Source: a virus
IMG/VR virus record: IMGVR_UViG_3300042541_003180
Span: 21,312-85,311 of that record
Length of the DNA: 64,000 nucleotides
Strand: one strand, 5' to 3'
The notes under the pieces: generated by a model
Databases searched by the model: none
Told to the model about the DNA's origin: nothing
What the model saw: only the letters and a program-made list of their open reading frames with translations
Position numbers and translations under genes: made by a program
Shown here: piece by piece, positions 12,618 through 58,692 of the stretch
Layout: every line of letters starts with the position of its first letter
Numbering within the stretch: position 1 is the first letter of the stretch

Positions 12618-12627
12618 ACATTATATA

Positions 12628-13476: not shown

Positions 13477-13495
13477 TAGTGAGTTTTTGTTTTTA

Positions 13496-13915
13496 TTACC
13501 AGAATGATCCACCTGGATGTCTGTGAGATTTTTTATCATAATCATCCTTTAAATAAACTTCCGCAGATTTACCTTTCTCGTCAAATACAAGTTTTATACT
13601 ATCTCCTGCCTTTGGTGTATCTTCTCTCCAAAATCCATTTGGATATATAGTAGTTTCTATTTTATTGCCATTATTATCAATGAATTGAATTCTTAATTTA
13701 CCCTTACTATGTCTTTCTATATCTTTTATAGTACCAGTAGATGTTTTATTTGCATAATCTATATTTTCAATATCATTACCATTTTTATCTTCTATACCAA
13801 CAAAGGTACAAGAACCAAATAATAGACCAAGTGCCGCAACCATACCGGTTGCCACTGATCTTAATCCTTCATCAATATTTTCAAAATCTTCATTATATTT
13901 TTTAATGTATTTCAT
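13496..13915 (-). CDS. Tagged protein with hydrophobic segment and beta domain
   Basis: A 139-aa protein starting MKYIKKYNEDFENIDE, with a gp21-type site IDE-G at residues 14-17. A hydrophobic segment (VATGMVAALGLLFGSCTFVG) ends in a cysteine-containing, lipobox-like stretch (LLFGSC), though it is internal. The rest looks like a small beta domain (GTIKDIERHSKGKLRIQFID; GDSIKLVFDEKGKSAEVYL). It ends HRHPGGSFW. After cutting, the hydrophobic segment would lie at the new N-terminus, as in the 12042-12617 protein. Function is unknown. Confidence 0.66.
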   Translation of the reverse strand: MKYIKKYNEDFENIDEGLRSVATGMVAALGLLFGSCTFVGIEDKNGNDIENIDYANKTSTGTIKDIERHSKGKLRIQFIDNNGNKIETTIYPNGFWREDTPKAGDSIKLVFDEKGKSAEVYLKDDYDKKSHRHPGGSFW

Positions 13916-13930
13916 AAAAGTTTATTTTTT

Positions 13931-13942
13931 TATATATATTAA
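13931..13942 (-). promoter_or_regulatory. Candidate late promoter element
   Basis: Minus-strand TTAATATATATA, 15 bases before the tagged gene ending at 13496. Confidence 0.42.
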
Positions 13943-13946
13943 ATAA

Positions 13947-13972
13947 AAAAACTCACTAAAAAGTGAGTTTTT
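13947..13972 (-). terminator. Hairpin terminator
   Basis: AAAAACTCACT / AGTGAGTTTTT with an AAAA loop, directly downstream of the 13979-14434 gene on the minus strand. Confidence 0.8.
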
Positions 13973-13978
13973 AATTTT

Positions 13979-14434
13979 TTATCTTAATAATTTTCTACTT
14001 AGTGCAAAATCATATAATACTGGTAAGTTTAAGTATTCTATAAAGTGTTTTCTCATTTCTTCCAGTGTTCTAGATCTATTTATTATACTTATTACTAAAA
14101 ATCCAAACTCTTCTTGAAACTCTAAATAACAATCACACCAAGGTCTGTTATAATGTTCTAATGTTTTCCATTCTCTTTCACCACCTGATAACCAGTATAA
14201 ACTTTTTTCTGGTGATACATTATCTGTATCTATATCTCTAGTTTCTAGTTGCCAAATTGGATCATTTGCATCACAATTTCTTAATAATAATGAAACTGCC
14301 TCACCTAAATCTGTCGTTAACTCTTTTCCTATTTCAAAGAACCATTCATTTCCTTCTCTGCTTATTATAATTGTGTTATTGTCATAAATAATTTTAGTTC
14401 CAATTTCTTTCAGTAAAGTTCTTTTTCTTTTCAT
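13979..14434 (-). CDS. Hypothetical protein, 151 aa
   Basis: Starts MKRKRTLLKEIGTK. Soluble, mixed charge, with tryptophan-rich segments (GNEWFFEIGKE; DPIWQLETR; WCDCYLEFQ). It looks like a single alpha/beta domain with a C-terminal helix (RTLEEMRKHFIEYL). No motif was recognised. It follows the 96-aa repeat protein by about 20 bases and ends at a terminator, so these two form a short operon. Confidence 0.6.
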   Translation of the reverse strand: MKRKRTLLKEIGTKIIYDNNTIIISREGNEWFFEIGKELTTDLGEAVSLLLRNCDANDPIWQLETRDIDTDNVSPEKSLYWLSGGEREWKTLEHYNRPWCDCYLEFQEEFGFLVISIINRSRTLEEMRKHFIEYLNLPVLYDFALSRKLLR

Positions 14435-14453
14435 AGTAATTAATTATTTTTAT

Positions 14454-14744
14454 CTAGATAGGTTTGTTTAACCCACTCTTCCAAGTTCCTTTGAAGACTC
14501 CTTTCTCCCAAATACCATTCTCCCACGTTCCATAGAATCCACCATTTTTAAATATGCCGTATTTCCAATTACCAAATTTATAAATACCTTCGTGCCAAAT
14601 TAAAGTATCTTTCTTAATTTCTACAATAGCATCTTCAACCTCAGAATCAATTAGCCAATTGAATCCCAGTTCTTTTAATTTCTTTAAAATTTCTGATTTT
14701 GTTGTGATAGATTTATCGTTATACTTAAATTCTTTAATTCCCAT
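14454..14744 (-). CDS. Small protein with G/W/F aromatic repeat
   Basis: A 96-aa protein whose C-terminal 45 residues repeat a 5-residue pattern of aromatic then G (GNWKYG, GIFKNG, GFYGTW, GIWEKG, GVFKGTW), similar to MORN-like or pentapeptide-like beta repeats seen in Bacteroidetes and their phages. The N-terminal half (MGIKEFKYNDKSITTKSEIL) is a small helical domain. Such repeats form elongated beta structures and often mediate binding. No specific role can be assigned. Confidence 0.62.
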   Translation of the reverse strand: MGIKEFKYNDKSITTKSEILKKLKELGFNWLIDSEVEDAIVEIKKDTLIWHEGIYKFGNWKYGIFKNGGFYGTWENGIWEKGVFKGTWKSGLNKPI

Positions 14745-14860
14745 TTTGAATAATCTTTTTACGAGTATATATATTTTTTAACGTCTGACATTCTTTTTCT
14801 TTTTCTCTAATTTTTACTTAAAAATGAAGATTTTACTTTGAAAAAAAATAAAATAAATGA

Positions 14861-14886
14861 AAAAACCGAGATAGTTCTCGGTTTTT
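14861..14886 (-). terminator. Hairpin terminator
   Basis: AAAAACCGAGA / TCTCGGTTTTT with a TAGT loop, at the end of the 14886-15961 gene pair. Confidence 0.85.
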
Positions 14887-15461
14887 TATAATAATTTGAA
14901 TATAACATTTACTTCAGAAGTTATTATATCAAAAGATAATTTTTCAAAATCTTCTTTACTTAGTTTATGTGACTTCCCTTCAGTTGTAAGATCTCTCATG
15001 TTTGGTAAAGGTATTTCTTCATCATCTCCATACATAAGTTTCATTTGTTCTTTATAAATAAAATAAACATCTAATATATTATAATGTTTCATAACACGAT
15101 CTACCATAAATAGTAATTGATCTTTAACATCATCAATAATAAATTTAGTTTCTTCTATACCACCTTCATCACCATGTCTAACTTGTTTCTGTACTCTAAT
15201 TCTAGCTTCTGTTTTTCTCTCACCATGTATAGTTTCACCACTATGTCCTCTTTCAAATGAGCTTTCTACAAATGATATAGTTATAGTAAAGTCATCCTGT
15301 AAATAAGTAATAGAATCCAGTATAAACTCTTTAAATTTGGATTGTTTTTCTTCTGAACCAGTTAGGTTATTTTCGGTATTGGGTTCTTGTTCTTTGATTT
15401 TATCTTTTATAAATGTTTTAACCTTATTGATAAATCCTTCGTGTGTTTGTAAATACTTCAT
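14886..15461 (-). CDS. Tagged protein, tandem paralogue A
   Basis: A 191-aa protein starting MKYLQTHEGFINKVKTF, a weaker form of the shared tag, with a possible site IKE at 22-24. The body (ITYLQDDFTITISF, KTEARIRVQKQVR, FIIDDVKDQLLFMVDRVM) and the C-terminus (LSKEDFEKLSFDIITSEVNVIFKL) align by pattern with the protein encoded immediately upstream (15464-15961). The two appear to be a tandem duplication. They are separated by two bases and end at a terminator. No enzyme motif was recognised. Confidence 0.66.
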   Translation of the reverse strand: MKYLQTHEGFINKVKTFIKDKIKEQEPNTENNLTGSEEKQSKFKEFILDSITYLQDDFTITISFVESSFERGHSGETIHGERKTEARIRVQKQVRHGDEGGIEETKFIIDDVKDQLLFMVDRVMKHYNILDVYFIYKEQMKLMYGDDEEIPLPNMRDLTTEGKSHKLSKEDFEKLSFDIITSEVNVIFKLL

Positions 15462-15463
15462 AA

Positions 15464-15961
15464 TTAATATATTTTTATAAGAAAAGTTACTTCTTCAACT
15501 TCATCATTATCTGATAATTCTTCAAACTCTTCTATTGATACTTTTTCTTCTTTTATTTTAGCTAACATTTTAACCTTATCATAAGTTTTTTCAACTAATT
15601 GTGATGTTAGTAAAATAAAATCTTTAATTTCTGATAATTTAAAACTTTCTTTTTCGGTTCTACTAATATTTACTCTAAATATAGTTTTGTATTTACCTGT
15701 AACTAATTCACCTTCTTTATTTACATAAATATCATTTTCACTAAATCCAACTAATATATTAAATCTATCATCATCTGAGAGATAAGATACTTCATTTCTA
15801 ATTAATTGTGATAAATCTTTTTTTGGAAAGTCGTCTGGTAGAGTAGGTTTTAATTCAAATAAAATACCAACTAGTTCAACAACTTCTTGAGTATCAAGAT
15901 CTTCGGGTCTAGTATATTTTATTTTACCGGAGAAGTTCTCATATAATTTTAAGTTTTTCAT
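15464..15961 (-). CDS. Tagged protein, tandem paralogue B
   Basis: A 165-aa protein starting with a canonical tag, MKNLKLYENFSGKIKY. No nearby (I/L)-x-E site is visible. Segments VSYLSDDDRFNILVGF, KYKTIFRVNISR, EIKDFILLTSQLVEKTYDKV and VSIEEFEELSDNDEVEEVTFLI correspond in order to segments of the downstream paralogue. The start codon follows a TATATATAC element by only a few bases. Function is unknown; duplication of a tagged cargo suggests selection for diversity. Confidence 0.68.
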   Translation of the reverse strand: MKNLKLYENFSGKIKYTRPEDLDTQEVVELVGILFELKPTLPDDFPKKDLSQLIRNEVSYLSDDDRFNILVGFSENDIYVNKEGELVTGKYKTIFRVNISRTEKESFKLSEIKDFILLTSQLVEKTYDKVKMLAKIKEEKVSIEEFEELSDNDEVEEVTFLIKIY

Positions 15962-16680: not shown

Positions 16681-19392
16681 ATGAGATATTTGAATAAAAG
16701 AGAGGATTTTCTTAGAGAAAAAAACTCTAACTCTATAAATAAAATCAAGTCAATAAACGAAGAAGCCGAATTTAACAGTGGACCATTTGCAAATGACGTT
16801 GGCTGGAATGACTCTTTATTGGGTCGTTTGATTAATCATATTATTAGAAAAGCAAGAATTGCTAGAAAAGTTGGACAAATTAAAAAATTAATAGAAAGGT
16901 TACAAGAACAATTTGATTATCTTGTAGATCAATCTACTGTTTTCTCGTTAGGTGATGATAGTCAATTATTATTACTTAGAATAACACTTTCTTCTTTCTT
17001 TAAAGAGTTGATATTTGCGGTTGAGAATGGACGTCCAGTATCTGAATTAATTGGATTAACAGATGGTGCAATCAAAGTGGTTAATAATGTAAAGGATTTA
17101 GATAAGAAAGATGTTTTATTAGAGGAACTTAAAAAATTTAGAGAGTTTTTAAATCAATTTAAAGATGAAGAAGGTTCTGGTGATGATAGTGGAGAGAATT
17201 CTGAAAGTGGTTCTGGTGATGCAGATGCAGAAGGTATAGTTGCAAATAGTTATGGTTTAATGGTTAAGAATTTAAAAGCACTTGCTTTAATTTTGGCTAA
17301 CTATAAAAAAGTTAATACTGGGGCATCAACTGGTACAACTGGTAAACCAAAAGTAACATATATTACTAAAAATGGTGATAAATTAAATCTAATTCAAAGT
17401 GATAATACTAAAAATCCTAAAAAATTAGATATTGCTACTATTAGAAGTAAAAACCCTAAACTAAGTACATATGCAAAAGATGATCAATCACTTCCTTCTG
17501 GAATGGTTCTTCTTATGGAGGCAGCTGATTCATTTGGTACTGGTGGTTCTGCAAATAGAGGTAAAACTGTTGTTGGTGAAGATCACCTAACACAAGCATT
17601 CAATAAATTGAAAAAGGATATTGAGGTGTTAATTTCACCTAAAGAAAAAGGTATAGCGGTTGATTATACTTTAATAAATGATATTGCAACAAATTCAAAT
17701 AATACTGATAGTAAAAAACTTATAAAAAATCTTTATAATGAAGTAAATAGATATTTGGTTGGTGATAAGAAAGCAACAATACAAGAAAAAGATAAACTTT
17801 ATAACGAGGGTATTGAAATTTTAAATGATAAAAATAAGATTGTTATTATTGCTGAAAAAATTGCTAGATTTTCAAAAAGAGCTCTTCAATTTCAGAAAGA
17901 AAATTTATATGGTGGTTTAGGAGATTTAAAAGTTCCTTTACAAACATTTGTAACTACTTTACTAGAGATAAATAAAGTACCTATAGTTACTGCTAAAAAG
18001 GAATCTTTATTTAATTACTCTTCATTTTTAGAAGCAAAAAATATATTACCTTCTGGAACACCAAATTCTAATCCTGGTGCAACTGCGGCTGTTCCTCAAG
18101 GTGGTACTGCAAGTGGTGATGCACAAGGTAAAGAAGGTGATGATGCACAAGGTAAAGAAGGTGGTGATCAAAGTAAAAAAATCTTAGAGTTTTTTAATCA
18201 AACTTGTATAGAAGTTAGAGCATTTACTGCAACTGACGAAGAGATTACTAAATTAAGAGAAGAATTAGAAACCAAGAAGAAAGAGGGTGGTGAAGTGATT
18301 ATGAGTATGGATCCTATTATTGAAATAATGAATCTTTTTATCAAAGCTTATAAATTATATACAGTTCAAACAATTACAAAAAGAAGTGAGAAGGTTGATA
18401 CAAATACATTATCTGAATATACTTCATTTGGTGGTAATTCAAGTGATGGTGGTGATAGTGGTAGAAATGGTCCTTATAGAAATAATAAATTATTTGATGC
18501 TTGGGAAGAAGGTGTTAATGAAATAAGAAAAAATCGTAAGTATCAAGTTTTCTTTACTAAGAATGCTAAGTTAAGATTACCAACTGTACCTGATCCTAAT
18601 CCTGCTAAAGCAGATGATTGGGAAATTAAAGATAATGCTGGTATTAACTTTAATAGATTTATAAATGACATATTAGATGGTGAGAAGTTGTATAAAAGTG
18701 GATCTGAAAGAGGTAAAGTTGCAGTATTTGTTGATTCATATTTTGGAGAAGGTGCAGTAACTAAAAACGGTGAGGGTGCCATGGCAACATTAGATGAGAA
18801 GGATCTTACTGATGCTGCTACATTAGAAAATTCTAAACAGAAATTGAGTTTAGAATTAGGTAAAATTAATCCTGCTCTTAAAGGAGTTGATTTAAAGGCA
18901 AACACAATTTTTACAATTACTTATAAAAACGAAGATGATGTAGTTAAACAAAGAACATTTTTAATTCATGAAGTTTCAGGTGGTAATATATATATGTCAT
19001 ATACCTTAATTAATTATTATAAAAATAAGTACTTGAATAGAATGAATGGAACTCAAAAAGATATACTCAAAGGAACATTTCCTGTGAATTTGGCAAATGA
19101 TGGTACACTAGCTCCTAAATATACTATGGTTAAGGTAAATGAGTTTGATAACATTTTCAAACCAAATAATACAATAACTGTTTCTTCAGTTGATAATGAT
19201 GGTACAGTAACTTCACCTGTATTTAAAGGTATTTCTGAGATTTATTGGTTAGTTTATACAGAAAATAAAAAGATTTATACTATTGATGATACTACTGAAC
19301 CAAAATTAGCTAATCTTATTTTACAAGCAGGTAATAAACCTTGTAAAACAACAGTTAATTCTAAATCTGGTATTCAAATTAAAAAATCATAA
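16681..19392 (+). CDS. Large tagged (putative internal head) protein, 903 aa
   Basis: Begins MRYLNKREDFLREK, a variant tag, with gp21-type sites LRE at 11-13 and INE at 25-27, the latter followed by E-A. The N-terminal part is helical and basic (IIRKARIARKVGQIKKLIERL). Two low-complexity hinges rich in G, S, D and E (around residues 163-180 and 470-490) separate three globular regions. No catalytic motif was recognised. T4 also packages a large tagged protein, Alt (682 aa), but no ADP-ribosyltransferase signature is visible here. Its stop overlaps the next gene's ATG by one base, and the sheath gene follows, so it is probably a late virion protein. Confidence 0.65.
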   Translation: MRYLNKREDFLREKNSNSINKIKSINEEAEFNSGPFANDVGWNDSLLGRLINHIIRKARIARKVGQIKKLIERLQEQFDYLVDQSTVFSLGDDSQLLLLRITLSSFFKELIFAVENGRPVSELIGLTDGAIKVVNNVKDLDKKDVLLEELKKFREFLNQFKDEEGSGDDSGENSESGSGDADAEGIVANSYGLMVKNLKALALILANYKKVNTGASTGTTGKPKVTYITKNGDKLNLIQSDNTKNPKKLDIATIRSKNPKLSTYAKDDQSLPSGMVLLMEAADSFGTGGSANRGKTVVGEDHLTQAFNKLKKDIEVLISPKEKGIAVDYTLINDIATNSNNTDSKKLIKNLYNEVNRYLVGDKKATIQEKDKLYNEGIEILNDKNKIVIIAEKIARFSKRALQFQKENLYGGLGDLKVPLQTFVTTLLEINKVPIVTAKKESLFNYSSFLEAKNILPSGTPNSNPGATAAVPQGGTASGDAQGKEGDDAQGKEGGDQSKKILEFFNQTCIEVRAFTATDEEITKLREELETKKKEGGEVIMSMDPIIEIMNLFIKAYKLYTVQTITKRSEKVDTNTLSEYTSFGGNSSDGGDSGRNGPYRNNKLFDAWEEGVNEIRKNRKYQVFFTKNAKLRLPTVPDPNPAKADDWEIKDNAGINFNRFINDILDGEKLYKSGSERGKVAVFVDSYFGEGAVTKNGEGAMATLDEKDLTDAATLENSKQKLSLELGKINPALKGVDLKANTIFTITYKNEDDVVKQRTFLIHEVSGGNIYMSYTLINYYKNKYLNRMNGTQKDILKGTFPVNLANDGTLAPKYTMVKVNEFDNIFKPNNTITVSSVDNDGTVTSPVFKGISEIYWLVYTENKKIYTIDDTTEPKLANLILQAGNKPCKTTVNSKSGIQIKKS

Positions 19393-19922
19393 TGAGACAT
19401 TTAAAGAATTATAAGTTATTTTTAGAAGCAGATGGTATAAGTATTCCAATTGAACAAACTGATCCAGTTGATATTAAGATGAATAAACAAAGTATGGAAA
19501 CTCTTAGTAAACAACTAGCTGATTATAAAACTAAACGACCTCAAATTGATAATGTTTACAAAAACATTAAAGATTCAGTTCAATTAGAAAGAGAATTGGT
19601 TAGAATATTAGGAGATCAAGCAATTCAAAATGGTCCTGATAGAAATCCATTTCTTGTTGAATATTCAACTTTAGCTAGAATGCAAAGTGATTTATTAAAA
19701 ATGGAACAAGAAAATAAAAATTATCAAGAAGAGCTAAAATTATCTACTGATGCTACTACAAAACAAGCTGTTAATACAAAGATACAAGAGTTGGTACAGA
19801 AAGTTAATAAAACAAAGACTGATTTTACGTTCGCTGAGAAGAAGCACAAAGATAATTTAGCTAAAATTGAAAAGGATATGAAAGAAAATATCACAAAAAT
19901 ATCTAATGTTAATCAAAAATAG
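19392..19922 (+). CDS. Tagged helical protein
   Basis: A 176-aa protein starting MRHLKNYKLFLEADG. The tag ends in FLE-A, a gp21-like processing site. The remainder is almost entirely charged helix with coiled-coil character (ETLSKQLADYKTKRPQ; TKIQELVQKVNKTKTDFTFAEKKHK). It is translationally coupled to the 903-aa gene (overlapping TAATG). The composition resembles scaffold, core or DNA-associated internal proteins. Function is unproven. Confidence 0.65.
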   Translation: MRHLKNYKLFLEADGISIPIEQTDPVDIKMNKQSMETLSKQLADYKTKRPQIDNVYKNIKDSVQLERELVRILGDQAIQNGPDRNPFLVEYSTLARMQSDLLKMEQENKNYQEELKLSTDATTKQAVNTKIQELVQKVNKTKTDFTFAEKKHKDNLAKIEKDMKENITKISNVNQK

Positions 19923-19981: not shown

Positions 19982-22900
19982 ATGGCAATTCAAATTGGAA
20001 AATACAAAAGACCTGGTATCTTCATCGAAGAAATTGACAAGTCAGTATTCAGCACACCTACAGTAGAAGGAATAACTAACCTTATAATAGGAGTTTCTAA
20101 AAAAGGACCTGTTAATACACCGATTAGATTAACAACGGTTAACGACTTAGAAGCGGTTTATGGTCAATTAGATAGAAACTTGGAAAGAAAAGGATCTTTT
20201 TTCCACAGAACTGTTTCTAAAATGTTAGAATCATCTCCTGTTTTTGCGATGAACGTGTTATTAACGGATGATACATTAGATGTTATTGAGTATAAATCAT
20301 TATCTTCTTCTGCACGTTATCTTAATGATATTAAAAGAGAAGGTCCTTATAGAAGATTCTTTGATACAACTGGTTTCTGGAAGAGAGATACTGAGGCTTT
20401 CATTAATCTAACAAAAAATAACTCTGGTTATGCAGAAAGAGCATTAAGCTTTACTAACTTATCAGACAGATACGTTACTGTATTTGCTGTTAAAACACAA
20501 GTTAGTGGATTTGATAGAACATTACTTGAATGGTATGGTTCTATTGAGAAACTACCACCTTATGTTAATGCTTCAGATTATGCATCTGACTATATGGTTG
20601 ACGTGGTTGTAATCGCAGGTGACTGGTCAGATTACAGAAACTTAGCTGTAGATAACAGATGGGGTCAATATTTTAATTCTGATGGTTTAATTAAAGGTGA
20701 ATTAAGAAACTTTGCAAATGATAGAAATGTTACTTTGTTAGCATATTACGAAGGATTATCATTAATTCCTTACTTTAGAGATTTAGAAGGAAGAAATATC
20801 TTTATTGAAACTACGATTAACAGAGGTACTGATACAACTGGTTTATATTGTGCATTCAATGCTGATTTAGTTGAAGAAGATTACTATACAGGTTTAGTTG
20901 ACCTTATCGGTGGTACTTTAATTGACTCTGCTAATCCATTAATAACACAACAAAAAGAAATTGATTTCTTATCATATAAAGAAACTATTATTGAATCAGT
21001 TCCATTTACTGCAACTCCTTTGGATTTACCAGGGAACGTTGTTGCATTATTTGGTACAGTATCAAATAATAATAGTGGTTTAGAAGGTCAAATGCCACAC
21101 GCTTTTGGTAATCCAAAAGAAACAGGTGTTGTTGTTCATCACTCTAATAGAACTGCTTGGTTTACAGAAGGTGCCGTAGTTGGTGTCAATCTTGCTACTG
21201 GTGCTAATGTAGATACAGATGGACATTTTAATCATACAAAAACTGGTTCAGGTACATCATCTATATTAAATGTTAAATATACTTCAACTAACTTTATTGA
21301 TAATGGATTTGATGTAAGTCCTTACGCTGTAATTGGTGGTCAGTATATTCCTGTTACATATGGTACATATTCATTTAATGTTAAATCTACTGACTTTACA
21401 TACTCTACGTCTGTAGCAACTTACTCAACAGTATTCACATTAAATACAAGTGGAGTTATCTCTAGTGTTACTAGTTATACACCAAATGTTAGACCAAGTG
21501 TATCAACATCTGATATAGTATTGGGTTATATTTCATATAATGTTATAAATGGTGGTTTCTCTGGAACGGCATCATTTCAAGAGATTACTATTGCATCAGA
21601 CCCTACACTAGAAGAATATGTTATTCCTGGTTATGGAGATGATGTATATTTCCAAGCAGGTACAACACCATACCAAGATTTAACTTATGGTACTAATTCA
21701 ACAGTACATGATTATTATGTTTATGATTTAAGTAACGAGGTTGGTTATTCACAAGGTGATGTTAGATTGGTGTTCTGGGGAACAGCAGGATCTGATGTTA
21801 AAAACTATGTACAGTTTAGAAAACTTAAAATGTTTAATAAAATTACTGAGTTTTTAGGTACTTATAAAGATCAAGCAACTATGATTATTAGTGTAGATGG
21901 TTCTGGTAAAGAAGTTAAGAAAAGTTTAGCTTCTATGACAGTTACTGAAGTAGTAACTTCTTCAACACAAAATAAATCTTTGGTATTAAAAACTGGATTA
22001 TCAAATGTTTCTTATATCTCTGGTGCAAATGGTGGTGTATTTAAAATCTATAAAAACGATAATGAGTTTATTTTAGGTAGTGATAAATTACGTACTAAAG
22101 ATGAACCTGCAAATACTAATATTGGTGTTGTTGGTAAGTATTCAACTTTCTACCAAAAATACTTTAATGGTTTAATTAGTGATGGTGATTATTTCTATGC
22201 AAATAGATTATTAACTACTGCAGATAAAGATACATTGAACGATGAGTTTGTAGATGGTGGTGGTAATTTTACAACTACTATAAATGTTACATTTGTTAAT
22301 GGTGAGGCAACTCCTGATCCTACAGTAATTAATATTACAAGTCCTTATGCAGGATATAACTATGTTGTATTTGAAACTCCAAGTGTCAGTGCTTCAACTG
22401 CAGTAAGTAATTTAGATTTACAAATTTTAGATCAAATTTTATTCCCTGTATCACTTAATAATACTACTTCATTAACAATACAACAAAATAGTGTTAATTC
22501 TTCACAGGGTGCTGTTGCTTTAGCAACTGCTTTAGGGTTTACCGGTAGTAATTTCTTCGCATATGAGGTAGCAGAGAATGTTACTTACGAAGAATTAACA
22601 GGAGTTACTATGATGTATAATACATTAGAAAGTGCTGCAATGAAGTCTTATTTACAAATGTTTGTAGATTTAGATGGTTTATTAGAAGTTTCATTTACTA
22701 GTGATGATTTAATATCAATTAATTCAATTGAACCAGTTGCTAACTATACATTTAATGTTCAATCTGAATTAAGTAACTTAAAACAAACACTTGAGATTGA
22801 ATTACCTACTGGATATACTCAAGTACAAAACAAAATATTAGTTAATGCATCAAGATATAGTGAAGTAAAAGTTGGTGATTTCTTATTAGCAGATAATAGT

Positions 22901-24148
22901 GATTTCACTCCTGCATTAGGACAAACAAACCTAAGAAACTTAACAAGAATCTTGAGTAAAAGACAATATGCTGGTGATACTAGTTTAACTGAGATTACTT
23001 GTGATGCTAAAATCTTAAAAACATCATATACTAATCCTCTAACTGGTTTATTAGATTATCAAACAACAAGATACTCAACAGTTGACCAATATACAACGAC
23101 ATATAAAGGTATTTCTTTAAAAGGATTTAGAGTTAGACAAGCTTCTTTACCTGATGGTACTGAAACTAAACAAAATCAAATCTTAAACTTGATTGCAAAA
23201 GGAACACCATTGTTCAAAGCGTTAATTAATAAAGAAGCATTTGACTTTAGATATTTAGTTGACTCATTTGGTTTAGGTTTAACTGAAAGATCAAAACAAC
23301 AATTAGTAGATATTTGTGGTGAGAGATTGAATGTATTTGGTTTCATTAATATGCCATCATTAAAATCATTCAAAAACTCTTCATCTCCAAGTTTCGTAAA
23401 CACAGAAGGAGTATTACAAGTAGATTTTATTGCTAAAGGTGGAGACCCAGAAAGTAATCCTGCATTCCTTTACTCATTCGGTGATGGAAATGGAGTATCA
23501 ACAGTTGGTTATTTCACTCCTTATGTAACAGTAAATGATAATGGTAGACCATTAGATTTTCCACCTGCTGCATATGTTGCGACAACTTATATGAGAAAAC
23601 ATACTTCTATTGTAAGTAATATTACACCTTGGACAATTGCTGCTGGTGTTACAAATGGTAGAGTTACTAATATTGCTGGTGTTGAACACGATTTCAACCC
23701 AACAGATATTGAGTTCTTAAACCAAGCACAAATGAACCCAATTGTATTGAAAAGAAACAGAGGATATGTAATTGAGACTGAGAATACTGCATTAACAATC
23801 TACAAATCAGCATTATCTTTAATCCACGTGAGAGAAGTATTAGTTGAGTTAGAAAGAGAACTTGCTGCAATGTTGCTTGATTACCAATGGAAGTTTAATA
23901 CTCCTGATGTTAGAGCTGAAATTAAATTAAGAGCTGATGTTATTTGTGAAACTTATGTAAACAAAAATGGTTTATATAACTACTTCAACAAAATGGATGA
24001 CGAGAATAATACAGTTGATATTATCGATAGTCAAATTGGAGTTCTTGATACTTATGTAGAACCAATCAAAGGTATGGGTATCATTGTAAACAATGTTACA
24101 ATTTTAAGAACTGGTGCTATTGCAGCTGGTGGTTTCATCAACGCATAA
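19982..24148 (+). CDS. gp18: Contractile tail sheath protein (T4 gp18-like), greatly enlarged
   Basis: The N-terminus (KYKRPGIFIEEIDKS, then NLIIGVSKKGPVNTP) and C-terminus (LLDYQWKFNTPDVRAEIKLRADVICETY, then GMGIIVNNVTILRTGAIAAGG) are typical of gp18. Sheath subunits polymerise round the tube and contract to drive it through the envelope. At 1388 aa it is about twice T4 gp18 (659 aa). The extra length lies in the middle (roughly residues 350-1000), rich in S, T, N, Y and V like surface beta domains. These probably project outward and may bind the cell surface or reinforce the sheath. The start follows an A-rich leader without Shine-Dalgarno sequence. Confidence 0.92.
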   Translation: MAIQIGKYKRPGIFIEEIDKSVFSTPTVEGITNLIIGVSKKGPVNTPIRLTTVNDLEAVYGQLDRNLERKGSFFHRTVSKMLESSPVFAMNVLLTDDTLDVIEYKSLSSSARYLNDIKREGPYRRFFDTTGFWKRDTEAFINLTKNNSGYAERALSFTNLSDRYVTVFAVKTQVSGFDRTLLEWYGSIEKLPPYVNASDYASDYMVDVVVIAGDWSDYRNLAVDNRWGQYFNSDGLIKGELRNFANDRNVTLLAYYEGLSLIPYFRDLEGRNIFIETTINRGTDTTGLYCAFNADLVEEDYYTGLVDLIGGTLIDSANPLITQQKEIDFLSYKETIIESVPFTATPLDLPGNVVALFGTVSNNNSGLEGQMPHAFGNPKETGVVVHHSNRTAWFTEGAVVGVNLATGANVDTDGHFNHTKTGSGTSSILNVKYTSTNFIDNGFDVSPYAVIGGQYIPVTYGTYSFNVKSTDFTYSTSVATYSTVFTLNTSGVISSVTSYTPNVRPSVSTSDIVLGYISYNVINGGFSGTASFQEITIASDPTLEEYVIPGYGDDVYFQAGTTPYQDLTYGTNSTVHDYYVYDLSNEVGYSQGDVRLVFWGTAGSDVKNYVQFRKLKMFNKITEFLGTYKDQATMIISVDGSGKEVKKSLASMTVTEVVTSSTQNKSLVLKTGLSNVSYISGANGGVFKIYKNDNEFILGSDKLRTKDEPANTNIGVVGKYSTFYQKYFNGLISDGDYFYANRLLTTADKDTLNDEFVDGGGNFTTTINVTFVNGEATPDPTVINITSPYAGYNYVVFETPSVSASTAVSNLDLQILDQILFPVSLNNTTSLTIQQNSVNSSQGAVALATALGFTGSNFFAYEVAENVTYEELTGVTMMYNTLESAAMKSYLQMFVDLDGLLEVSFTSDDLISINSIEPVANYTFNVQSELSNLKQTLEIELPTGYTQVQNKILVNASRYSEVKVGDFLLADNSDFTPALGQTNLRNLTRILSKRQYAGDTSLTEITCDAKILKTSYTNPLTGLLDYQTTRYSTVDQYTTTYKGISLKGFRVRQASLPDGTETKQNQILNLIAKGTPLFKALINKEAFDFRYLVDSFGLGLTERSKQQLVDICGERLNVFGFINMPSLKSFKNSSSPSFVNTEGVLQVDFIAKGGDPESNPAFLYSFGDGNGVSTVGYFTPYVTVNDNGRPLDFPPAAYVATTYMRKHTSIVSNITPWTIAAGVTNGRVTNIAGVEHDFNPTDIEFLNQAQMNPIVLKRNRGYVIETENTALTIYKSALSLIHVREVLVELERELAAMLLDYQWKFNTPDVRAEIKLRADVICETYVNKNGLYNYFNKMDDENNTVDIIDSQIGVLDTYVEPIKGMGIIVNNVTILRTGAIAAGGFINA

Positions 24149-26273: not shown

Positions 26274-27392
26274 ATGAGAGTTTTTATGATAACTGACACT
26301 CATTTCGGTATTTATCTTAATAATTTAGATAAGTGGTTGAATATGATGGAGTCAACATTTTATGAGTTTGTTATTCCTTACTTAAAAGAAAATGTAAAAG
26401 AAGGTGATGTTCTAATACACCTTGGTGATTTATTTGATAATAGAACTAGTTTACCTATTATTGTTTTAAATAAGGTAGAGAAGATACTTAGAGAACTAGC
26501 CGAAATTCTTCCTGTTCATATAATGGTTGGAAATCATGATCTTTGGAATAAAGGATCTAATGAAGTAAACTCTGTTAGATTATATGGTTATATCGATAAC
26601 ATTACAGTATATGAAGAAACGACAACATTAGATTTAGGTGGTCAAAGAATCGTTTTAATGCCTTGGGTTGAGAAACGTTTAGATATGGTAAATGAGATTA
26701 GATCTAATCAAGGAGATTATCTAATGTGTCACTCTGATTTGAATGGATGTAAAATGCACCTTAATTCAGTTGCTCATAGAAACGCTGATAAGATTGATGT
26801 AGAAGATTTTAAGTCATATAAGAGAGCTTTTTCTGGTCACATACATATTCGTCAAGAGAATAGTAATTTCACGTTTATAGGATCTTTATATCAAATGGAT
26901 AGAAATGATTATGGTGATCAAAAGGGAATAACAATGTTAGATCTATCTGATGATGAAGTTAGCTTTATTCCAAATACATATTCACCCGTATTCAGAAAAT
27001 ATAATGTTATTTCAGAAACTGATGTTGATGGATTAGATGCTTTAAGAAATTCAAAAGATTATATTGATTTGTCTATTTCAAATAACTTACTTATTAGTAA
27101 TAGAAAATTAAGAAGAAAATTAGAAGTTCTATTGGAAAATAGTGGATTCTCTTCAGTTGATTATATTGATGATATAGTTACTAAGGTTGACGAATCAGTT
27201 GACTCAACACCTGATGAAGAATTTGATGAAGAAAAATTAGACATTTCTATACAACTTGATTATGCCGATTATATAAAAGAGTATATAAATAAACAAAAGT
27301 ATGATAATGATACTTTTAGAGAAGGAGTGGTAACTGAATATGATGAGGTTATTAGAATTTATAACGAGAACTATAGTTCTAAAAAAGATTAA
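26274..27392 (+). CDS. gp47: SbcD/Mre11-type recombination nuclease (T4 gp47-like)
   Basis: A 372-aa metallophosphoesterase; T4 gp47 is about 340 aa. Metal-binding motifs occur in order: DTHFG (8-12), GDLFDN (51-56), GNHDLW (86-91), a histidine in MCHSD (about 151) and SGHIHI (about 189). The C-terminal part is acidic (DEEFDEEKLD). With gp46 (an SbcC/Rad50 ATPase) it processes DNA ends for recombination-dependent replication. No gp46 gene lies next to it, unlike T4, where 46 and 47 are neighbours. A host-type -7 box precedes it, suggesting early expression. Confidence 0.9.
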   Translation: MRVFMITDTHFGIYLNNLDKWLNMMESTFYEFVIPYLKENVKEGDVLIHLGDLFDNRTSLPIIVLNKVEKILRELAEILPVHIMVGNHDLWNKGSNEVNSVRLYGYIDNITVYEETTTLDLGGQRIVLMPWVEKRLDMVNEIRSNQGDYLMCHSDLNGCKMHLNSVAHRNADKIDVEDFKSYKRAFSGHIHIRQENSNFTFIGSLYQMDRNDYGDQKGITMLDLSDDEVSFIPNTYSPVFRKYNVISETDVDGLDALRNSKDYIDLSISNNLLISNRKLRRKLEVLLENSGFSSVDYIDDIVTKVDESVDSTPDEEFDEEKLDISIQLDYADYIKEYINKQKYDNDTFREGVVTEYDEVIRIYNENYSSKKD

Positions 27393-27394
27393 AA

Positions 27395-27595
27395 ATGAGA
27401 GCAGAAAACGTATTTGAAAGAATTACAAATGGAATACTATACAATCGTAATTTAAAAGTTTATACAAAGGATTATTTACAAGGAATTGTAATAGAACTTG
27501 AACAACAAGAGCAGTTTGAGAAATGTATAGAACTAAATGATTTTATAAGTAAAAGATTTAGTCACGAACTAAATTACAAAAACCCTATTAAATAA
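27395..27595 (+). CDS. Small hypothetical protein downstream of gp47
   Basis: A 66-aa protein (start MRAENVFERITNG) whose ATG lies two bases after the gp47 stop. The second half (VIELEQQEQFEKCIELNDFISKRFS) is a helix hairpin resembling the UVR motif of UvrB/UvrC, a short protein-protein interaction helix; the match is loose. The coding end and stop are built into the terminator stem. It is co-transcribed with gp47 and might be a partner, which is inferred from position only. Confidence 0.6.
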   Translation: MRAENVFERITNGILYNRNLKVYTKDYLQGIVIELEQQEQFEKCIELNDFISKRFSHELNYKNPIK

Positions 27596-27605
27596 TAGGG
27601 TTTTT
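27578..27605. terminator. Bidirectional hairpin terminator overlapping a stop codon
   Basis: AAAAACCCTATTA / TAATAGGGTTTTT around AA. The stop codon of the 66-aa gene is within the stem and loop. Confidence 0.88.
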
Positions 27606-27609
27606 ATTT

Positions 27610-28368
27610 TTAAAATTTTATAAATAATACTTGTACTGGTATACCAAGTTGAAGAGCTATAGTAGACCTTTTGTGTCCTCCAATCAATCTATTATCATTA
27701 CCTTGATTGTCCTTTAAGTTTATAACAAAGGGCGTGGGTAAAGATATTTTACCATTATTTTTAATCAAATCATCATAAGTTATTAAGTATCGTTCAACAT
27801 CTGCTTTAATTGGACAAGTAGGTAATGCACTTTTTAGTTCTTCAATACCTTTTATACCTTTATTTTTAACTTGAAAAGAACCTTTCCATCCTCCCTTTCC
27901 AGATGTACTACCGAATATTTTTGTTAAATCTCCCATATTTCCGGTTGAATCAACATCTTTCCAAGTAACTACACTACATGATTTTATAAAATTTGATACT
28001 TCTTTTATACAAGTTGGATCACCGCCCTCTACAATACCATCTTTATCTGGAACACCAACTATATCCTTTTTAAATTCAATGTTTCCAAATCCTAAACTTT
28101 CAGGATTTTTATTTAACAATAGTTTTTTAATTTCTTCCTTATCGGTTGTTTCTTTTTTAAGATAATTTTTTACTACATAATGAAAAACACTAGGTATTTT
28201 AGCATAAACCCTATCAAAGTTATCTGGTTTAAAAAACAACTCCATATTATTTATCAACTCATGTAGTTCTGATAAAATTGTTTTATCATCTGGTGTAACC
28301 CAATCGATTTCAAATTTCATCTCATTTTCATCTAGTATGAATGATTCATATACTTTTAAATACCTCAT
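27610..28368 (-). CDS. Tagged protein with ParB/Srx-like C-terminal segment
   Basis: A 252-aa protein starting MRYLKVYESFILDE, with a possible gp21 site LDE at 12-14. The middle has DPTCIKEVSNFIKSCSVVTW and a glycine-rich loop (STSGKGGWKGSF). The end (NRLIGGHKRSTIALQLGIPVQVLFIKF) resembles the ParB/sulfiredoxin motif, usually D-G-x-H-R-x-x-A-x-x-x-x-G, preceded by a segment (TPFVINLKDNQG) like the family's first strands. ParB-like folds bind or cut nucleic acid or hydrolyse nucleotides. Its ATG overlaps the upstream cupin gene's stop. The fold is moderately supported; activity is unknown. Confidence 0.6.
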   Translation of the reverse strand: MRYLKVYESFILDENEMKFEIDWVTPDDKTILSELHELINNMELFFKPDNFDRVYAKIPSVFHYVVKNYLKKETTDKEEIKKLLLNKNPESLGFGNIEFKKDIVGVPDKDGIVEGGDPTCIKEVSNFIKSCSVVTWKDVDSTGNMGDLTKIFGSTSGKGGWKGSFQVKNKGIKGIEELKSALPTCPIKADVERYLITYDDLIKNNGKISLPTPFVINLKDNQGNDNRLIGGHKRSTIALQLGIPVQVLFIKF

Positions 28369-28625
28369 AATTTTTGTAATTTTATTTTCAAATCTCCAGT
28401 TCCTTTTATAACTCTGTGATAAACTCCCATTGGTATAAAAACTTCACCTTGAATAACTTTTGGTAATTCATCATCTAATTGTACTTGCCAATCTGTTTCA
28501 CCAATAGATTCAATTATCCTATCTTCTCTATCTCTGTGCCATTGATAATCTCCAGAGTCAGTATTTTGTTTAAACTCTCTGATAAATATATTATCTGATA
28601 TTATTTCTTCTTTAAACGGTAACAT
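28365..28625 (-). CDS. Cupin-like small protein
   Basis: An 86-aa protein (MLPFKEEIISDNIF) with a cupin pattern: WHRDREDRIIE..GETDWQVQLDDELP followed by GEVFIPMGVYHRVIKG. H and E/Q residues in the first box and H in the second could hold a metal. Similar short cupins recur in large phages, often beside tagged or accessory genes. It has no N-terminal tag, although genes on both sides do. It overlaps both neighbours by 1-4 bases, so all three are translated together. Confidence 0.65.
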   Translation of the reverse strand: MLPFKEEIISDNIFIREFKQNTDSGDYQWHRDREDRIIESIGETDWQVQLDDELPKVIQGEVFIPMGVYHRVIKGTGDLKIKLQKL

Positions 28626-29209
28626 TATAAAATCTTATTAATTTTTTCAATTGAGGATTCATCAAATATTGCCACATTTTTAGAACCTCTTTCTGCAACC
28701 ATAAATCCATCATATCCTTTTGACTTTATTTGATTGATAATTGGATCACATTCTATTATTTGCCAAGAACCATTCTTTATTAGCCAAAGATAGTTATAAA
28801 CAGTTTGTGAAAAATCTTCTAAATCAAATTCCTTTTCGGTATCATAATCAAATCCTTTGAATCCTTTACCTCTATTTGCTATAAATTTTTTACCATTTGT
28901 AGGATCTTCATATTTATCATCTATCATTTTTTGTAATATTGATTTAAGTTCTAACTCTTTCATAGTCTTTACTTGCATCGGATCACATATTTTTAGATTT
29001 GACTTTATTTTTATTTCCCAAACGGCTCCTTCTGGAAATTGTTCTCTTTCATCGAATCCTGCAAAGTTTTTTGCAAAGTCTAAATTACTTGTTAAAAATA
29101 TAGCACCTGCAAATCTTTTTCTCTTTGGTGGAAAATCTCCTTTTCTATTACCATGATATAACTTTTCTTCTATAGATTCAAATATTTTGTATTCTTTTAA
29201 GTATTTCAT
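28625..29209 (-). CDS. Tagged ADP-ribosyltransferase-like protein (PolyVal-type)
   Basis: A 194-aa protein. Tag: MKYLKEYKIFESIEE. The ART pattern follows: LYHGN (17-21, strand with conserved His/Gly), an arginine-rich loop, AIFLTSNLDFAKNFAG (36-51) as in the F-L/F-T-x-x-x-x-x-A-x-x-Y/F-A motif, then a late KSKGYDGFMV and KNVAIFDESSIEKI, matching the YDG...vvFd..qIk ending of ART domains in phage polyvalent proteins. ARTs move ADP-ribose from NAD to host targets. T4 packages Alt, an ART that modifies RNA polymerase. Activity is plausible but the canonical catalytic glutamate is not certain. Confidence 0.68.
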   Translation of the reverse strand: MKYLKEYKIFESIEEKLYHGNRKGDFPPKRKRFAGAIFLTSNLDFAKNFAGFDEREQFPEGAVWEIKIKSNLKICDPMQVKTMKELELKSILQKMIDDKYEDPTNGKKFIANRGKGFKGFDYDTEKEFDLEDFSQTVYNYLWLIKNGSWQIIECDPIINQIKSKGYDGFMVAERGSKNVAIFDESSIEKINKIL

Positions 29210-29213: not shown

Positions 29214-30311
29214 TTATGTTATTTTTATTGCATCAAGCTTTGGTTTTACTATCATATAGATACCCACAGATATTACCAATGTGTCTAATACATTTAGTAT
29301 TGAACCAACGTATGGTATTTTCATAACTGCGGCTTTTATACCTTTTGTAATATCTTCTCCATTAAATCCTACCATTTTCCAAACTTCATCCATCGATTTA
29401 TCTTGTATTGAGTTAGTTAGTTCATCAAAACCACTTGCCTTTGAGACAAAATCTTTAAATTTATTTATACTACCTAAAACTTTATAAAAAATATATAACT
29501 CTAATATTTGAAATAGAAATACGAAAGATTTTCCAAATCTACTCATAGATTCTGATTTACCTGTTGTCAACCAACAAAAAAATTTATCCATTAGTTGTGA
29601 TAGTTTACTTATTCCTTGTTTCATTAAATCCTCGATTTTTGGAATCCAATTAAATGGTGGATAAGTCATTATTTTCTCACCTAATCTTTGTAAAAATGAT
29701 TTTTTTTCTTCTTCACCATTATCCTCTAATAAAAAATTATCATCTAAATAAATAAGTCCTTCATTAGTTCCTAAGTTTAATACACCTGAAAATGTTTCTG
29801 ATAATCTAGTCACTAAATCTGTTATAATTTGACCTGATGCTATATATTTTAGTAGTTCTGATATACTCGTTATATAAGATTTTAGTTTAATTAGTTTTTT
29901 ATTTTCTATAAATTCGATTAGTGGTTCTATAAATCCACTATCTTTTAACGCATGTTCTTTTATTTTCTGTTCCATTGATAAAAATTGTGTCTTAACATAA
30001 TTACCAATTTGTCCTGCTAGTGATTTTGCAAAATCTAATACATCTTTTGCTTTTTTTGCTAAATCAACTAATAGTTCACCTGCTTTAGATTTTACTGCTA
30101 AAACTCCTCTCTTACCTTTATCTACTAAATCAGAAAACCAGGATTCATTTATCATACCATAGTTAGAGTCTATTAGTATTTTCTCATTTATAGTTAAATG
30201 ACTTTCATATAATGAATTGAATATCATAGTAAAGTTAGATATATCATTACTATCAATACCCTCTAATATATTTACTTCTGAAAAATTCTCGTATGTCTTT
30301 AAGTATCTCAT
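29214..30311 (-). CDS. Large tagged membrane-interacting protein
   Basis: A 365-aa protein: MRYLKTYENFSEVNILEG, with an excellent gp21-type site ILE-G at 15-18. A long amphipathic helical region (GKRGVLAVKSKAGELLVDLAKKAKDVLDFAKSL) follows, then hydrophobic helices (FVFLFQILELYIFYKVL; YVGSILNVLDTLVISVGIYMIV). The helical, membrane-active look recalls pore-forming or ejection proteins, but no family was recognised. It is in a five-gene minus-strand run with the ART-like and structural proteins. Confidence 0.66.
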   Translation of the reverse strand: MRYLKTYENFSEVNILEGIDSNDISNFTMIFNSLYESHLTINEKILIDSNYGMINESWFSDLVDKGKRGVLAVKSKAGELLVDLAKKAKDVLDFAKSLAGQIGNYVKTQFLSMEQKIKEHALKDSGFIEPLIEFIENKKLIKLKSYITSISELLKYIASGQIITDLVTRLSETFSGVLNLGTNEGLIYLDDNFLLEDNGEEEKKSFLQRLGEKIMTYPPFNWIPKIEDLMKQGISKLSQLMDKFFCWLTTGKSESMSRFGKSFVFLFQILELYIFYKVLGSINKFKDFVSKASGFDELTNSIQDKSMDEVWKMVGFNGEDITKGIKAAVMKIPYVGSILNVLDTLVISVGIYMIVKPKLDAIKIT

Positions 30312-30326: not shown

Positions 30327-30905
30327 TTACCAGAAGCCGGGGTACGTACGTCCACCCCACAGATGTCCGTATTTATTTATTCTGCATGCCCAATAACCTG
30401 CAGTAGTTTTATCTTTCTTAGTATCACACTTATGTCTTGCTGCAAATGATTTTCTTGCTTTAGGATCACTTACCTTAGCAGTTAGACCACCATGAACATC
30501 TCCAAAGGCAATCTTTTTAACATTTCCAGTTTTAGGATTTCTAACATAAACATGGTATTTCTTAGTACCACCTCTCATAGGTTTATTCAACTCTACTTCT
30601 CTACCTTTGTATTCTGCTTCGTTTAATTCTTCAATAGTTTCCATTGGTAAATCTAAAGGAACTATTTGACCTTCATATTCGGCAAATCGACCTATATCAG
30701 TTGATTCAAATAATTCGGTATCTAATTCAGATAATTCGATTTGATTTGCATCAAATAATTGTCTTGCTTCTTTAATTAGGTTAAAGTATTGATTAGATCC
30801 AGGTCTAAATACATTTTCAACAATAGGTTTATTATTATCGATGTGATATTGTAGATTTTCTGATATTCTACCAGAGAATGATTCAAATAGTTTTAAGTAC
30901 TTCAT
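30327..30905 (-). CDS. Tagged conserved phage structural protein
   Basis: A 192-aa protein. The N-terminus MKYLKLFESFSGRISE is the most consensus form of the tag, with ISE at 14-16. The C-terminal 90 residues (RGGTKKYHVYVRNPKTGNVKKIAFGD; DPKARKSFAARHKCDTKKDKTTAGYWACRI) form a basic domain with paired cysteines. This module is widespread in large phage genomes and often annotated as a virion protein. It probably binds nucleic acid or capsid through its basic surface. It is first in a minus-strand run and has an upstream late-type element. Confidence 0.72.
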   Translation of the reverse strand: MKYLKLFESFSGRISENLQYHIDNNKPIVENVFRPGSNQYFNLIKEARQLFDANQIELSELDTELFESTDIGRFAEYEGQIVPLDLPMETIEELNEAEYKGREVELNKPMRGGTKKYHVYVRNPKTGNVKKIAFGDVHGGLTAKVSDPKARKSFAARHKCDTKKDKTTAGYWACRINKYGHLWGGRTYPGFW

Positions 30906-44402: not shown

Positions 44403-44624
44403 ATGAACGAAATAAATTTAAAAATGAAAACGGTTAATGTTGAAACAAAAACAAGAAAAGTTAAGTGTGATTGGTCTGTAGAGTTAGTAAAAGATCTAAA
44501 CTCTTTTCATAATCTTGATGTTGAATCAGAACTAGAAAAACTTTTAGTAAATGAACTTAAAATAGCTACTAGAAAAGAAAATAGAAAGAAAAAAATTGAA
44601 AATTTAACCAAACATACTTGTTAA
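44403..44624 (+). CDS. Small protein resembling a gp23 capsid segment
   Basis: A 73-aa protein: MKTVNVETKTRKVKCDWSVELVKDLNSFHNLDVESELEKLLVNELK. This closely follows a segment of T4-type major capsid proteins, whose pattern is K-x-R-x-L-K-A-x-[WYF]-T-x-E-x-A-Q-D-L-x-A-x-H-x-[LIM]-D-A-x-A-E-L. The rest of gp23 is missing, and the tail is basic. It could be a remnant, a decoy that interferes with a capsid, or an independent domain. It is 16 bases upstream of the polymerase-like gene. The pattern match is from memory of gp23. Confidence 0.6.
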   Translation: MNEINLKMKTVNVETKTRKVKCDWSVELVKDLNSFHNLDVESELEKLLVNELKIATRKENRKKKIENLTKHTC

Positions 44625-48958: not shown

Positions 48959-48982
48959 AAAAGAGGACTTAGTCCTCTTTTT
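48958..48982. terminator. Bidirectional hairpin terminator
   Basis: AAAAAGAGGACT / AGTCCTCTTTTT with a short central TTA loop, between convergent genes. Confidence 0.83.
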
Positions 48983-49972: not shown

Positions 49973-50038
49973 AATGTATATATTATTTTTTAAACTCGTA
50001 TTTGTATTCTTGATATAAGAAAAAAAGATTTTTAATAA

Positions 50039-50869: not shown

Positions 50870-51015
50870 GAGAATTGACATTAGAGGAAAGAAAAAATTT
50901 ATTTTGTGTTAAGTATAAAAAAAATATATCTTATGGATATGATTTAGAACATGAAGACTTGGATAGACATGATATTCCAAGAAAAGTTGAAACTAATTCA
51001 AAAAAAGATATATAA
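50866..51015 (+). CDS. Small hypothetical protein overlapping the thyA stop
   Basis: A 49-aa frame (MRELTLEERKNLFCVKYKKN, ending NSKKDI) with ATGA overlap to thyA, typical of translational coupling. Rich in charged residues. No motif. Its codon pattern is consistent with coding, but its shortness limits confidence. Confidence 0.5.
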   Translation: MRELTLEERKNLFCVKYKKNISYGYDLEHEDLDRHDIPRKVETNSKKDI

Positions 51016-58242: not shown

Positions 58243-58692
58243 ATGAGATACTTAAAAACTTTTGAAAATTTTGATTTTGATAGAATTGATTCTGATGAAT
58301 CAGATTATTTATATGTAGAAACTTCACAGATACCTAATTCTGGTAGAGGTTTATTTACTGCTATTGATATTGAGAAAGATGAAGTTATCTCAGTTTTTAA
58401 AGGAGAAATACTTTCGGATGAAGAAATAAAATCAAGAACTGAATCAGGTGATGATGATTACTTTATGAATTTACCAAATGGTGATATATTAGATTGTAAA
58501 CAAACTGATTGTTTTGCTAAGTATGCTAATGATGCAGAAGGTTCCGATACTGGATTTAAAAATAATTGTATCATCTCAATGGAAGGAGATGATGTTGTTC
58601 TTGTTGCTACAAGAGATATAGAGTCAGGTGAGGAAATATTTGTTGAGTATGGTGAAAACTATTGGCAACACAATTCTTATAGACTTAGCTAA
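58243..58692 (+). CDS. Tagged SET-domain lysine methyltransferase
   Basis: A 149-aa protein. Tag MRYLKTFENFDFD. The SET core is complete: GRGLFT (34-39, S-adenosylmethionine site), EVISVFKGEIL, FAKYANDAEG (91-100, equivalent to R-F-x-N-H-S with N and D), KNNC (106-109), and EEIFVEYGENYW (130-141) with the catalytic-type tyrosine Tyr136 and the pseudoknot. The size matches minimal viral SET proteins such as the PBCV-1 vSET (119 aa), which is itself virion-packaged. It would methylate lysine on host or phage proteins. Last gene of the tagged operon; its end overlaps the convergent gp25 gene. Confidence 0.8.
   Translation: MRYLKTFENFDFDRIDSDESDYLYVETSQIPNSGRGLFTAIDIEKDEVISVFKGEILSDEEIKSRTESGDDDYFMNLPNGDILDCKQTDCFAKYANDAEGSDTGFKNNCIISMEGDDVVLVATRDIESGEEIFVEYGENYWQHNSYRLS

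What the first reader, a model, noticed from the sequence alone, without database searches (positions are those of the whole stretch)
28625..29209. Tagged ADP-ribosyltransferase-like protein, a possible analogue of T4 Alt
A short ART-like domain with LYHGN, FLTSN..FAKNFAG and GYDGF...VAIFDESSIEKI follows the tag. T4 Alt is a packaged ART acting on host RNA polymerase. This protein is unrelated in sequence but has the same logic of tag plus ART.
Basis: partly seen in the sequence, partly recalled or inferred. Interest (0 to 1): 0.76.

Follow-up and report, generated by a model that had tools for sequence, protein, structure and literature searches.

The report
Tagged ADP-ribosyltransferase-fold protein of huge phage
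A giant bacterial virus carries a small protein with the fold of NAD-using ADP-ribosylating enzymes behind a short removable address label shared by about a fifth of the genes on its contig, so it is probably packed into the virus head and injected to modify the host, as T4 does with its unrelated Alt protein.

Summary
The ORF (28625-29209, minus strand, 194 aa) and all quoted motifs are real, conserved and under purifying selection. The contig is a fragment of a huge T4-like phage related to Mahaphages. AlphaFold (pLDDT 88) gives an ADP-ribosyltransferase (ART) fold at residues 16-194 and a disordered tag. Structural matches are ART-superfamily proteins, best the phage ART-PolyVal family; sequence profiles agree weakly. 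The catalytic His is present (H19). The usual Tyr is Phe in every homologue and the Asp (D167) is nearly invariant, so activity is plausible but unproven. It is not a relative of T4 Alt (R-S-E type). The tag is statistically solid: 23 of 103 contig genes carry it, against 1 of 1720 internal Met windows. It ends in a T4-type prohead protease site (KIFE|S), matching the I/L-x-E sites of T4 internal proteins and of this lineage's capsid protein. Relatives encode T4-type protease and capsid genes. In one lineage the same domain has a different N-terminus. Best reading: a head-packaged, protease-trimmed, injected ART of the polyvalent type. Packaging, NAD chemistry and target are inferred. Packaged phage ARTs are already a proposed class, so this is a new variant; the widely shared label is the more interesting part.

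The parts
28625..29209 (-). ORF of the tagged ART-fold protein, 194 aa
   Evidence: homologues; alignments A1/A3; AlphaFold pLDDT 88
29177..29209 (-). N-terminal tag MKYLKEYKIFE (residues 1-11), predicted T4-type capsid-targeting propeptide; predicted cut after E11 (KIFE|S), alternative after E15 (IEE|K)
   Evidence: residues 1-14 have pLDDT below 50; tag profile; I/L-x-E enrichment; same site type in T4 core and internal proteins and in MCPs of related phages. Cleavage itself not shown.
28628..29164 (-). ART-fold domain (residues 16-194)
29153..29155 (-). H19 in LYHGN, position of the catalytic His of strand 1
   Evidence: invariant in A3; aligned with YHGT of ART-PolyVal
29096..29098 (-). 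F38, position of the usual NAD-stacking Tyr of strand 2 (Phe here)
   Evidence: invariant in A3; aligned with Y of GFYF of JA13
28709..28711 (-). D167 in GYDGF, the conserved acid of the ART-PolyVal GYDG motif
   Evidence: nearly invariant in A3, Ser in one lineage (L024); aligned with KDGII of JA13
28676..28678 (-). N178, position of the catalytic Glu of diphtheria toxin/PARP-type ARTs
   Evidence: invariant in A3; assignment by motif position only
28365..28625 (-). Untagged 86-aa cupin-like ORF overlapping the ART stop by one base
   Evidence: next or close to the ART gene in most relatives examined; weak match to a cupin; also in phages where no ART homologue was found
27610..28368 (-). Tagged neighbour (MRYLKVYESFILDE), 252 aa, function unknown
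29214..30311 (-). Tagged neighbour (MRYLKTYENFSEVNILE), 365 aa, function unknown
30327..30905 (-). Tagged neighbour (MKYLKLFESFSGRISE), 192 aa, phrog_7595
58243..58692 (+). Tagged SET-domain protein, another enzyme with the same label
   Evidence: PF00856 E 1.2e-13; tag score 22.8
19982..24148 (+). Tail sheath protein (no tag), places the phage near Mahaphages

Best explanation
The protein is an early effector carried in the virion. It is a compact ART-fold domain, closest to the phage ART-PolyVal kind, behind an 11-15 residue capsid-targeting propeptide. The tag would take the protein into the prohead core. The phage's T4-type prohead protease would cut after KIFE (or IEE), leaving the domain starting next to LYHGN. 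The trimmed enzyme would enter the host with the DNA and modify a host macromolecule using NAD+, to favour takeover or counter a defence. Shown here: the ORF, its conservation, the ART fold (by prediction), the recurring tag, the protease-site match, and T4-type protease and capsid genes in relatives. Inferred: packaging, cleavage, injection, NAD+ chemistry and target. Estimated step probabilities: ART fold 0.95; tag is a capsid-targeting propeptide 0.75; catalytically active NAD+ user 0.6; RNA polymerase as target about 0.15.
For: Fold: AlphaFold pLDDT 88, pTM 0.82, tag disordered. Foldseek in BFVD: 20 matches at E <= 0.001, best 1.8e-7, several named ART-PolyVal, including standalone 180-200 aa proteins of jumbo phages. 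PDB top matches are RES toxins, MbcT, an anti-CRISPR protein and ParT. Realignment gives MbcT Z 8.0, ParT 7.9, a cyanophage A4 pre-ejectosome chain (residues 1418-1603) 7.7, diphtheria toxin 7.5, PARP about 6.5, KptA about 6. Pfam ART-PolyVal matches two divergent members end to end, E 0.0016 and 0.0033. Profile-profile with eleven phage ART-PolyVal domains: probability 89%, E 2e-6, His/aromatic/DG motifs aligned. Tag: 23 of 103 genes against 1 of 1720 internal windows, also in relatives. I/L-x-E within residues 4-20 in 15 of 22 tagged against 18 of 81 untagged genes, p 9e-5. T4 controls: ipII and ipIII MKTYQEFIAE|A, gp24 MAKINELLRE|S, gp22 contains IFESV. MCP N-termini of related phages conserve I/L/M-x-E|N/S. 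T4-type protease and capsid families found in relatives. One lineage has the same domain with another N-terminus. No replication or metabolic gene that I could recognise in the contig carries the tag. dN/dS 0.11-0.24.
Against: Phe replaces the usual Tyr in all homologues. The conserved Asp is Ser in one lineage (L024), and Asn sits where diphtheria/PARP-type enzymes have Glu. The window protein alone reaches no Pfam, PHROG or NCBIfam family, and relatives stay below Pfam's cut-off. PDB Foldseek E-values are at best 0.009. No virion proteome is at hand for these phages. Tagging of over a fifth of the genes is more than T4 shows. The protease and main capsid genes lie outside the known contig. 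No homologue was found in five Mahaphage-type genomes, so the gene is accessory.
Confidence: 0.5

Rival explanations
1. Packaged ART-fold protein without transferase activity: it binds NAD+, ADP-ribose or a nucleotide signal, or blocks a host factor, as a worn-down ART.
For: Phe instead of Tyr throughout, Asn at the classic Glu position, D167 replaced by Ser in one lineage.
Against: LYHGNRKG and FLT..FAK.F are essentially invariant in A3 and selection is strongly purifying. Aromatic substitution at the Tyr can leave activity in other ARTs (own knowledge), and ART-PolyVal members themselves vary there (Y, W, H in A5).
Confidence: 0.25
2. The tag is not a capsid signal but sends proteins to another place in the infected cell (for example a phage-made compartment), and the ART acts there during infection.
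For: So many genes are tagged, more than T4's set of packaged proteins; no direct packaging data.
Against: Replication and nucleotide enzymes recognisable from sequence (DHFR-like, topoisomerase-like, clamp-loader-like, exonuclease-like) lack the tag. The tag carries a T4-type protease site. The relatives' head genes are T4-type.
Confidence: 0.17
3. Toxin-antitoxin-like pair: the ART with the overlapping downstream 86-aa cupin-like gene as its partner.
For: One-base overlap and gene order kept in most relatives examined; RES and ParT toxins are among the closest folds.
Against: The small gene occurs in phages where no ART homologue was found and is unlinked in G006 (11228 versus 39522). The ART gene lacks it next door in L041 and L047.
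Confidence: 0.06

Closest known systems
Phage ART-PolyVal / Tox-ART-HYD2 family (Pfam PF18760; Iyer et al. 2017, PMC5512222)
   Same: Same fold and order of motifs (YHG; aromatic of strand 2; GYDG; V-V-F..x-x-I); standalone 180-200 aa versions exist in jumbo phages; predicted to be virion-delivered.
   Different: Phe instead of Tyr; below Pfam's cut-off (19.6 vs 31.2 bits at best); not inside a large multidomain protein; carries a short recurring cleavable-looking tag.
T4 Alt (Alt/VIP2 clade, R-S-E)
   Same: Logic of short N-terminal propeptide with an I/L-x-E site plus an ART domain in a T4-type head system (PMC7411985).
   Different: Different ART clade and active-site type, 194 vs 682 aa, no detectable sequence relation, target unknown.
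T4 internal proteins IPII/IPIII and their capsid-targeting sequence
   Same: Short shared N-terminal peptide ending in I-x-E followed by a small residue (MKTYQEFIAE|A vs MKYLKEYKIFE|S).
   Different: Here the peptide recurs on about a fifth of the contig's genes, including enzymes; function untested.
RES-domain NAD-degrading toxins (MbcT, Xre-RES) and ParT
   Same: Closest solved folds by realignment (Z 7.5-8.0).
   Different: 8-10% identity; no cognate antitoxin recognised; His rather than the Arg-type first motif (own knowledge of RES enzymes).

Membership tests
ART superfamily | ART split beta-sheet fold | tested here: met
   confident model; top matches nearly all ARTs
ART superfamily | NAD-binding His (or Arg) in strand 1 | tested here: met
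   H19 of LYHGN, invariant
ART superfamily | Transfer or hydrolysis of NAD+ | not testable with these tools
   needs purified protein
ART-PolyVal (PF18760) | Score above the curated cut-off (31.2 bits) | tested here: not met
   best relative 19.6 bits, E 0.0016; window protein no hit
ART-PolyVal (PF18760) | H-Y-D active site (PMC5512222) | tested here: not met
   H19 present, Tyr replaced by Phe, D167 nearly invariant but Ser in L024
ART-PolyVal (PF18760) | Profile-level relation to family members | tested here: met
   hhalign probability 89%, E 2e-6, co-linear motifs
T4 Alt / Alt-VIP2 clade | R-S-E active site | tested here: not met
   strand 1 carries His (YHG) in all homologues
T4-type capsid-targeting sequence | Short N-terminal peptide shared by unrelated cargo proteins | tested here: met
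   23 of 103 genes vs 1 of 1720 internal windows
T4-type capsid-targeting sequence | I/L-x-E protease site near the end of the peptide | tested here: met
   KIFE|S; enrichment p 9e-5; T4 controls; MCP sites
T4-type capsid-targeting sequence | T4-type prohead protease in the same phage | tested here: inconclusive
   present in relatives G001, G003-G006 and W02-W06, not on this 85-kb fragment
T4-type capsid-targeting sequence | Cargo found trimmed inside the head | not testable with these tools
   no virion proteome available

The most novel reading that the evidence does not exclude
In this huge-phage lineage an 11-residue label, cut by the head protease, addresses a large arsenal (about a fifth of the genes on this contig, including an ART-fold protein and a SET-domain protein) into the virion for injection, and the same effector domain has been moved between different N-terminal labels.
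Probability: 0.4. Interest if true: 0.8.

Novelty: new variant of a known kind. Interest (0 to 1): 0.52.

Why it matters
If right, the label lets one read from sequence alone which proteins a giant phage injects, turning dozens of unknown genes of the largest known phages into testable early effectors. The ART-fold member would be an early host-modifying enzyme outside the Alt clade, extending head-packaged ADP-ribosylation to huge phages of Bacteroidota-type hosts.

Tried and rejected
Direct family searches with the window protein gave nothing. PDB sequence profile search gave only unrelated weak matches. phrog_26711 'virion structural protein' (E 0.0013 with L028) looked like evidence of packaging, but known ART-PolyVal proteins of jumbo phages do not match it, so I dropped it. 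Cellular relatives: none in genome contigs with either query. Recurrence of the alternative N-terminus MNLQEQTYKMKKLMGL: only the ART orthologues themselves carry it as an N-terminus, so it remains unproven as a second tag. N178 as a missing catalytic Glu: rejected as decisive, since genuine ART-PolyVal domains vary at that position too. A published description of the tag was searched for in the paper library and not found. The CBB proteome paper's main text gave no statement on the ART-PolyVal protein CBB_455.

Full report
Observation. The ORF at 28625-29209 (minus strand, 194 aa) is exactly as described. The window is bases 21312-85311 of an 85,311-base viral contig. Its tail sheath protein is closest (59%) to that of LR745206, then LR756502 and LR756501, uncultured phages of 634, 642 and 735 kb, and more distantly to Lak phages. 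Al-Shayeb et al. place genomes of these sizes and the Lak phages in the Mahaphage clade and predict Bacteroidetes hosts (PMC7162821). The protein is encoded in many IMG/VR contigs at 58-100% identity. It was not found in five Mahaphage-type genomes, in the phage record collection, or in the cellular contigs, at the sensitivity used. dN/dS of 0.11-0.24 shows purifying selection.

What the domain is. With 23 homologues AlphaFold gives pLDDT 88 and pTM 0.82; residues 1-14 are below 50, and the rest is a mixed sheet and helix domain starting at strand 17-21, which holds LYHGN. Against predicted viral structures the best matches are phage ART-PolyVal or polyvalent proteins, including standalone 180-200 aa proteins of jumbo phages (E from 1.8e-7). 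Against solved structures the matches are RES toxins, MbcT, an anti-CRISPR protein and ParT (E from 0.009). On realignment diphtheria toxin, PARPs, KptA and a segment of a cyanophage A4 pre-ejectosome chain follow at Z 5-8. Each Z is middling, but the list is coherent. By sequence the window protein alone matches no family, while two divergent orthologues match Pfam ART-PolyVal end to end at E 0.0016 and 0.0033, below the curated cut-off. An alignment of eleven phage ART-PolyVal domains, collected through Dickeya phage JA13, matches the target family at probability 89%, E 2e-6, with YHG, the strand-2 aromatic and the DG motif in register.

Active site. Iyer et al. describe the polyvalent-protein ARTs as H (strand 1), Y (strand 2), D (strand 5) and T4 Alt as R-S-E, a different clade (PMC5512222). 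Here H19 is invariant, the Tyr is F38 in all homologues, the second aromatic is F49, and the GYDG Asp is D167, nearly invariant but Ser in L024. The classic Glu position is N178, but genuine ART-PolyVal domains vary there too. So the His and the motif order are in place and the chemistry is plausible; activity is not established. No coordinates were available, so residue placement rests on the alignment and the predicted strands.

The tag. A profile made from 21 other tagged genes of the contig scores this protein 14.8. At threshold 8, 23 of 103 genes pass, against 1 of 1720 internal Met windows; relatives G002 (17 of 90), G003 (9 of 91) and several Mahaphage regions carry it too. Tagged proteins are enriched for I/L-x-E in residues 4-20: 15 of 22 against 18 of 81 untagged, p 9e-5. 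This test is partly circular because the tag contains a frequent Glu. T4 is the control: ipII and ipIII begin MKTYQEFIAE|A, gp24 MAKINELLRE|S (ten residues removed, PMC9958956), and scaffold gp22 contains IFESV, like KIFE|SI here. Related phages encode T4-type prohead protease and major capsid protein. Their capsid protein N-termini conserve I/L/M-x-E|N/S in a position like that of the T4 processing site. Tagged genes include a SET-domain protein and many unknowns. The sheath and the recognisable replication or metabolic genes are untagged. In L042-L045 the same domain, about 60% identical, has another N-terminus, which fits a modular label, although that second N-terminus was not found on other proteins.

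Context. In most of the relatives examined the ART gene is followed, directly or within one gene, by an 86-88 aa cupin-like gene overlapping or nearly touching it. That gene also occurs in Flavobacterium, Methylophilales and Tenacibaculum phages where no ART homologue was found, so it is not a dedicated antitoxin. An independent parallel: in jumbo phage JA13 the ART-PolyVal protein shares the N-terminus M..[ILV][VIF]S[LI]S with seven other genes of a 50-kb stretch.

Mechanism and novelty. The best reading is a head-packaged, protease-trimmed, injected ART-fold effector. Head-packaged ARTs are an established idea: T4 Alt is the prototype, and a survey puts about 44% of phage ARTs in contexts suggesting packaging (PMC9503650). 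The protein is therefore a new variant of a known kind. It works like T4 Alt in logic but is not a member of the Alt clade, and by strict criteria (cut-off, Tyr) it is not a certified ART-PolyVal member either. The wide use of the label is the more surprising part, and I found no published description of it in the paper library.

Noticed in passing
window 58243-58692 (+), 57616-58233 (+), 54136-57641 (+), 16681-19922 (+), 12042-15961 (-): Same N-terminal tag on a SET-domain protein, a hydrolase-like protein and many unknown proteins; 23 of 103 genes of the contig are tagged.
   Followed up: partly
L156 (Dickeya phage JA13, MH460460 130000-179999): Eight genes including the ART-PolyVal protein JA13_190 share the N-terminus M..[ILV][VIF]S[LI]S, a parallel shared label in an unrelated jumbo phage.
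   Followed up: partly
L047 2423-3853 (+): Protein beginning MKYLDGFSDYFDKVNEE with TLYHYTTLSNLYLILKS, possibly a second ART-like domain; no Pfam match.
   Followed up: no
window 44403-44624 (+): A 73-aa ORF resembling a short piece of the T4 major capsid protein Gp23 (E 2.8e-15); a similar fragment occurs in G004.
   Followed up: no
L029 194-1054, L033 6001-6861: ART protein with a C-terminal extension of about 90 residues of unknown function.
   Followed up: no
L016 4464-5861 (-), 14736-16166 (+), 16220-17614 (+): Three paralogous proteins with T4-internal-protein-like N-termini (for example YITES) and cysteine-rich DnaJ-like repeats at the C-terminus.
   Followed up: no
L099 256-873 and 830-1164 (Tenacibaculum phage pT24): Two adjacent ART-like ORFs, the first beginning MLGLERYIIESL, again with an I-x-E near the start.
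   Followed up: no
L103-L105 (G006): T4-like structural gene contig in which several genes look interrupted by intein/Hint-like or homing elements (for example 26757-28322, 48696-52472).
   Followed up: no
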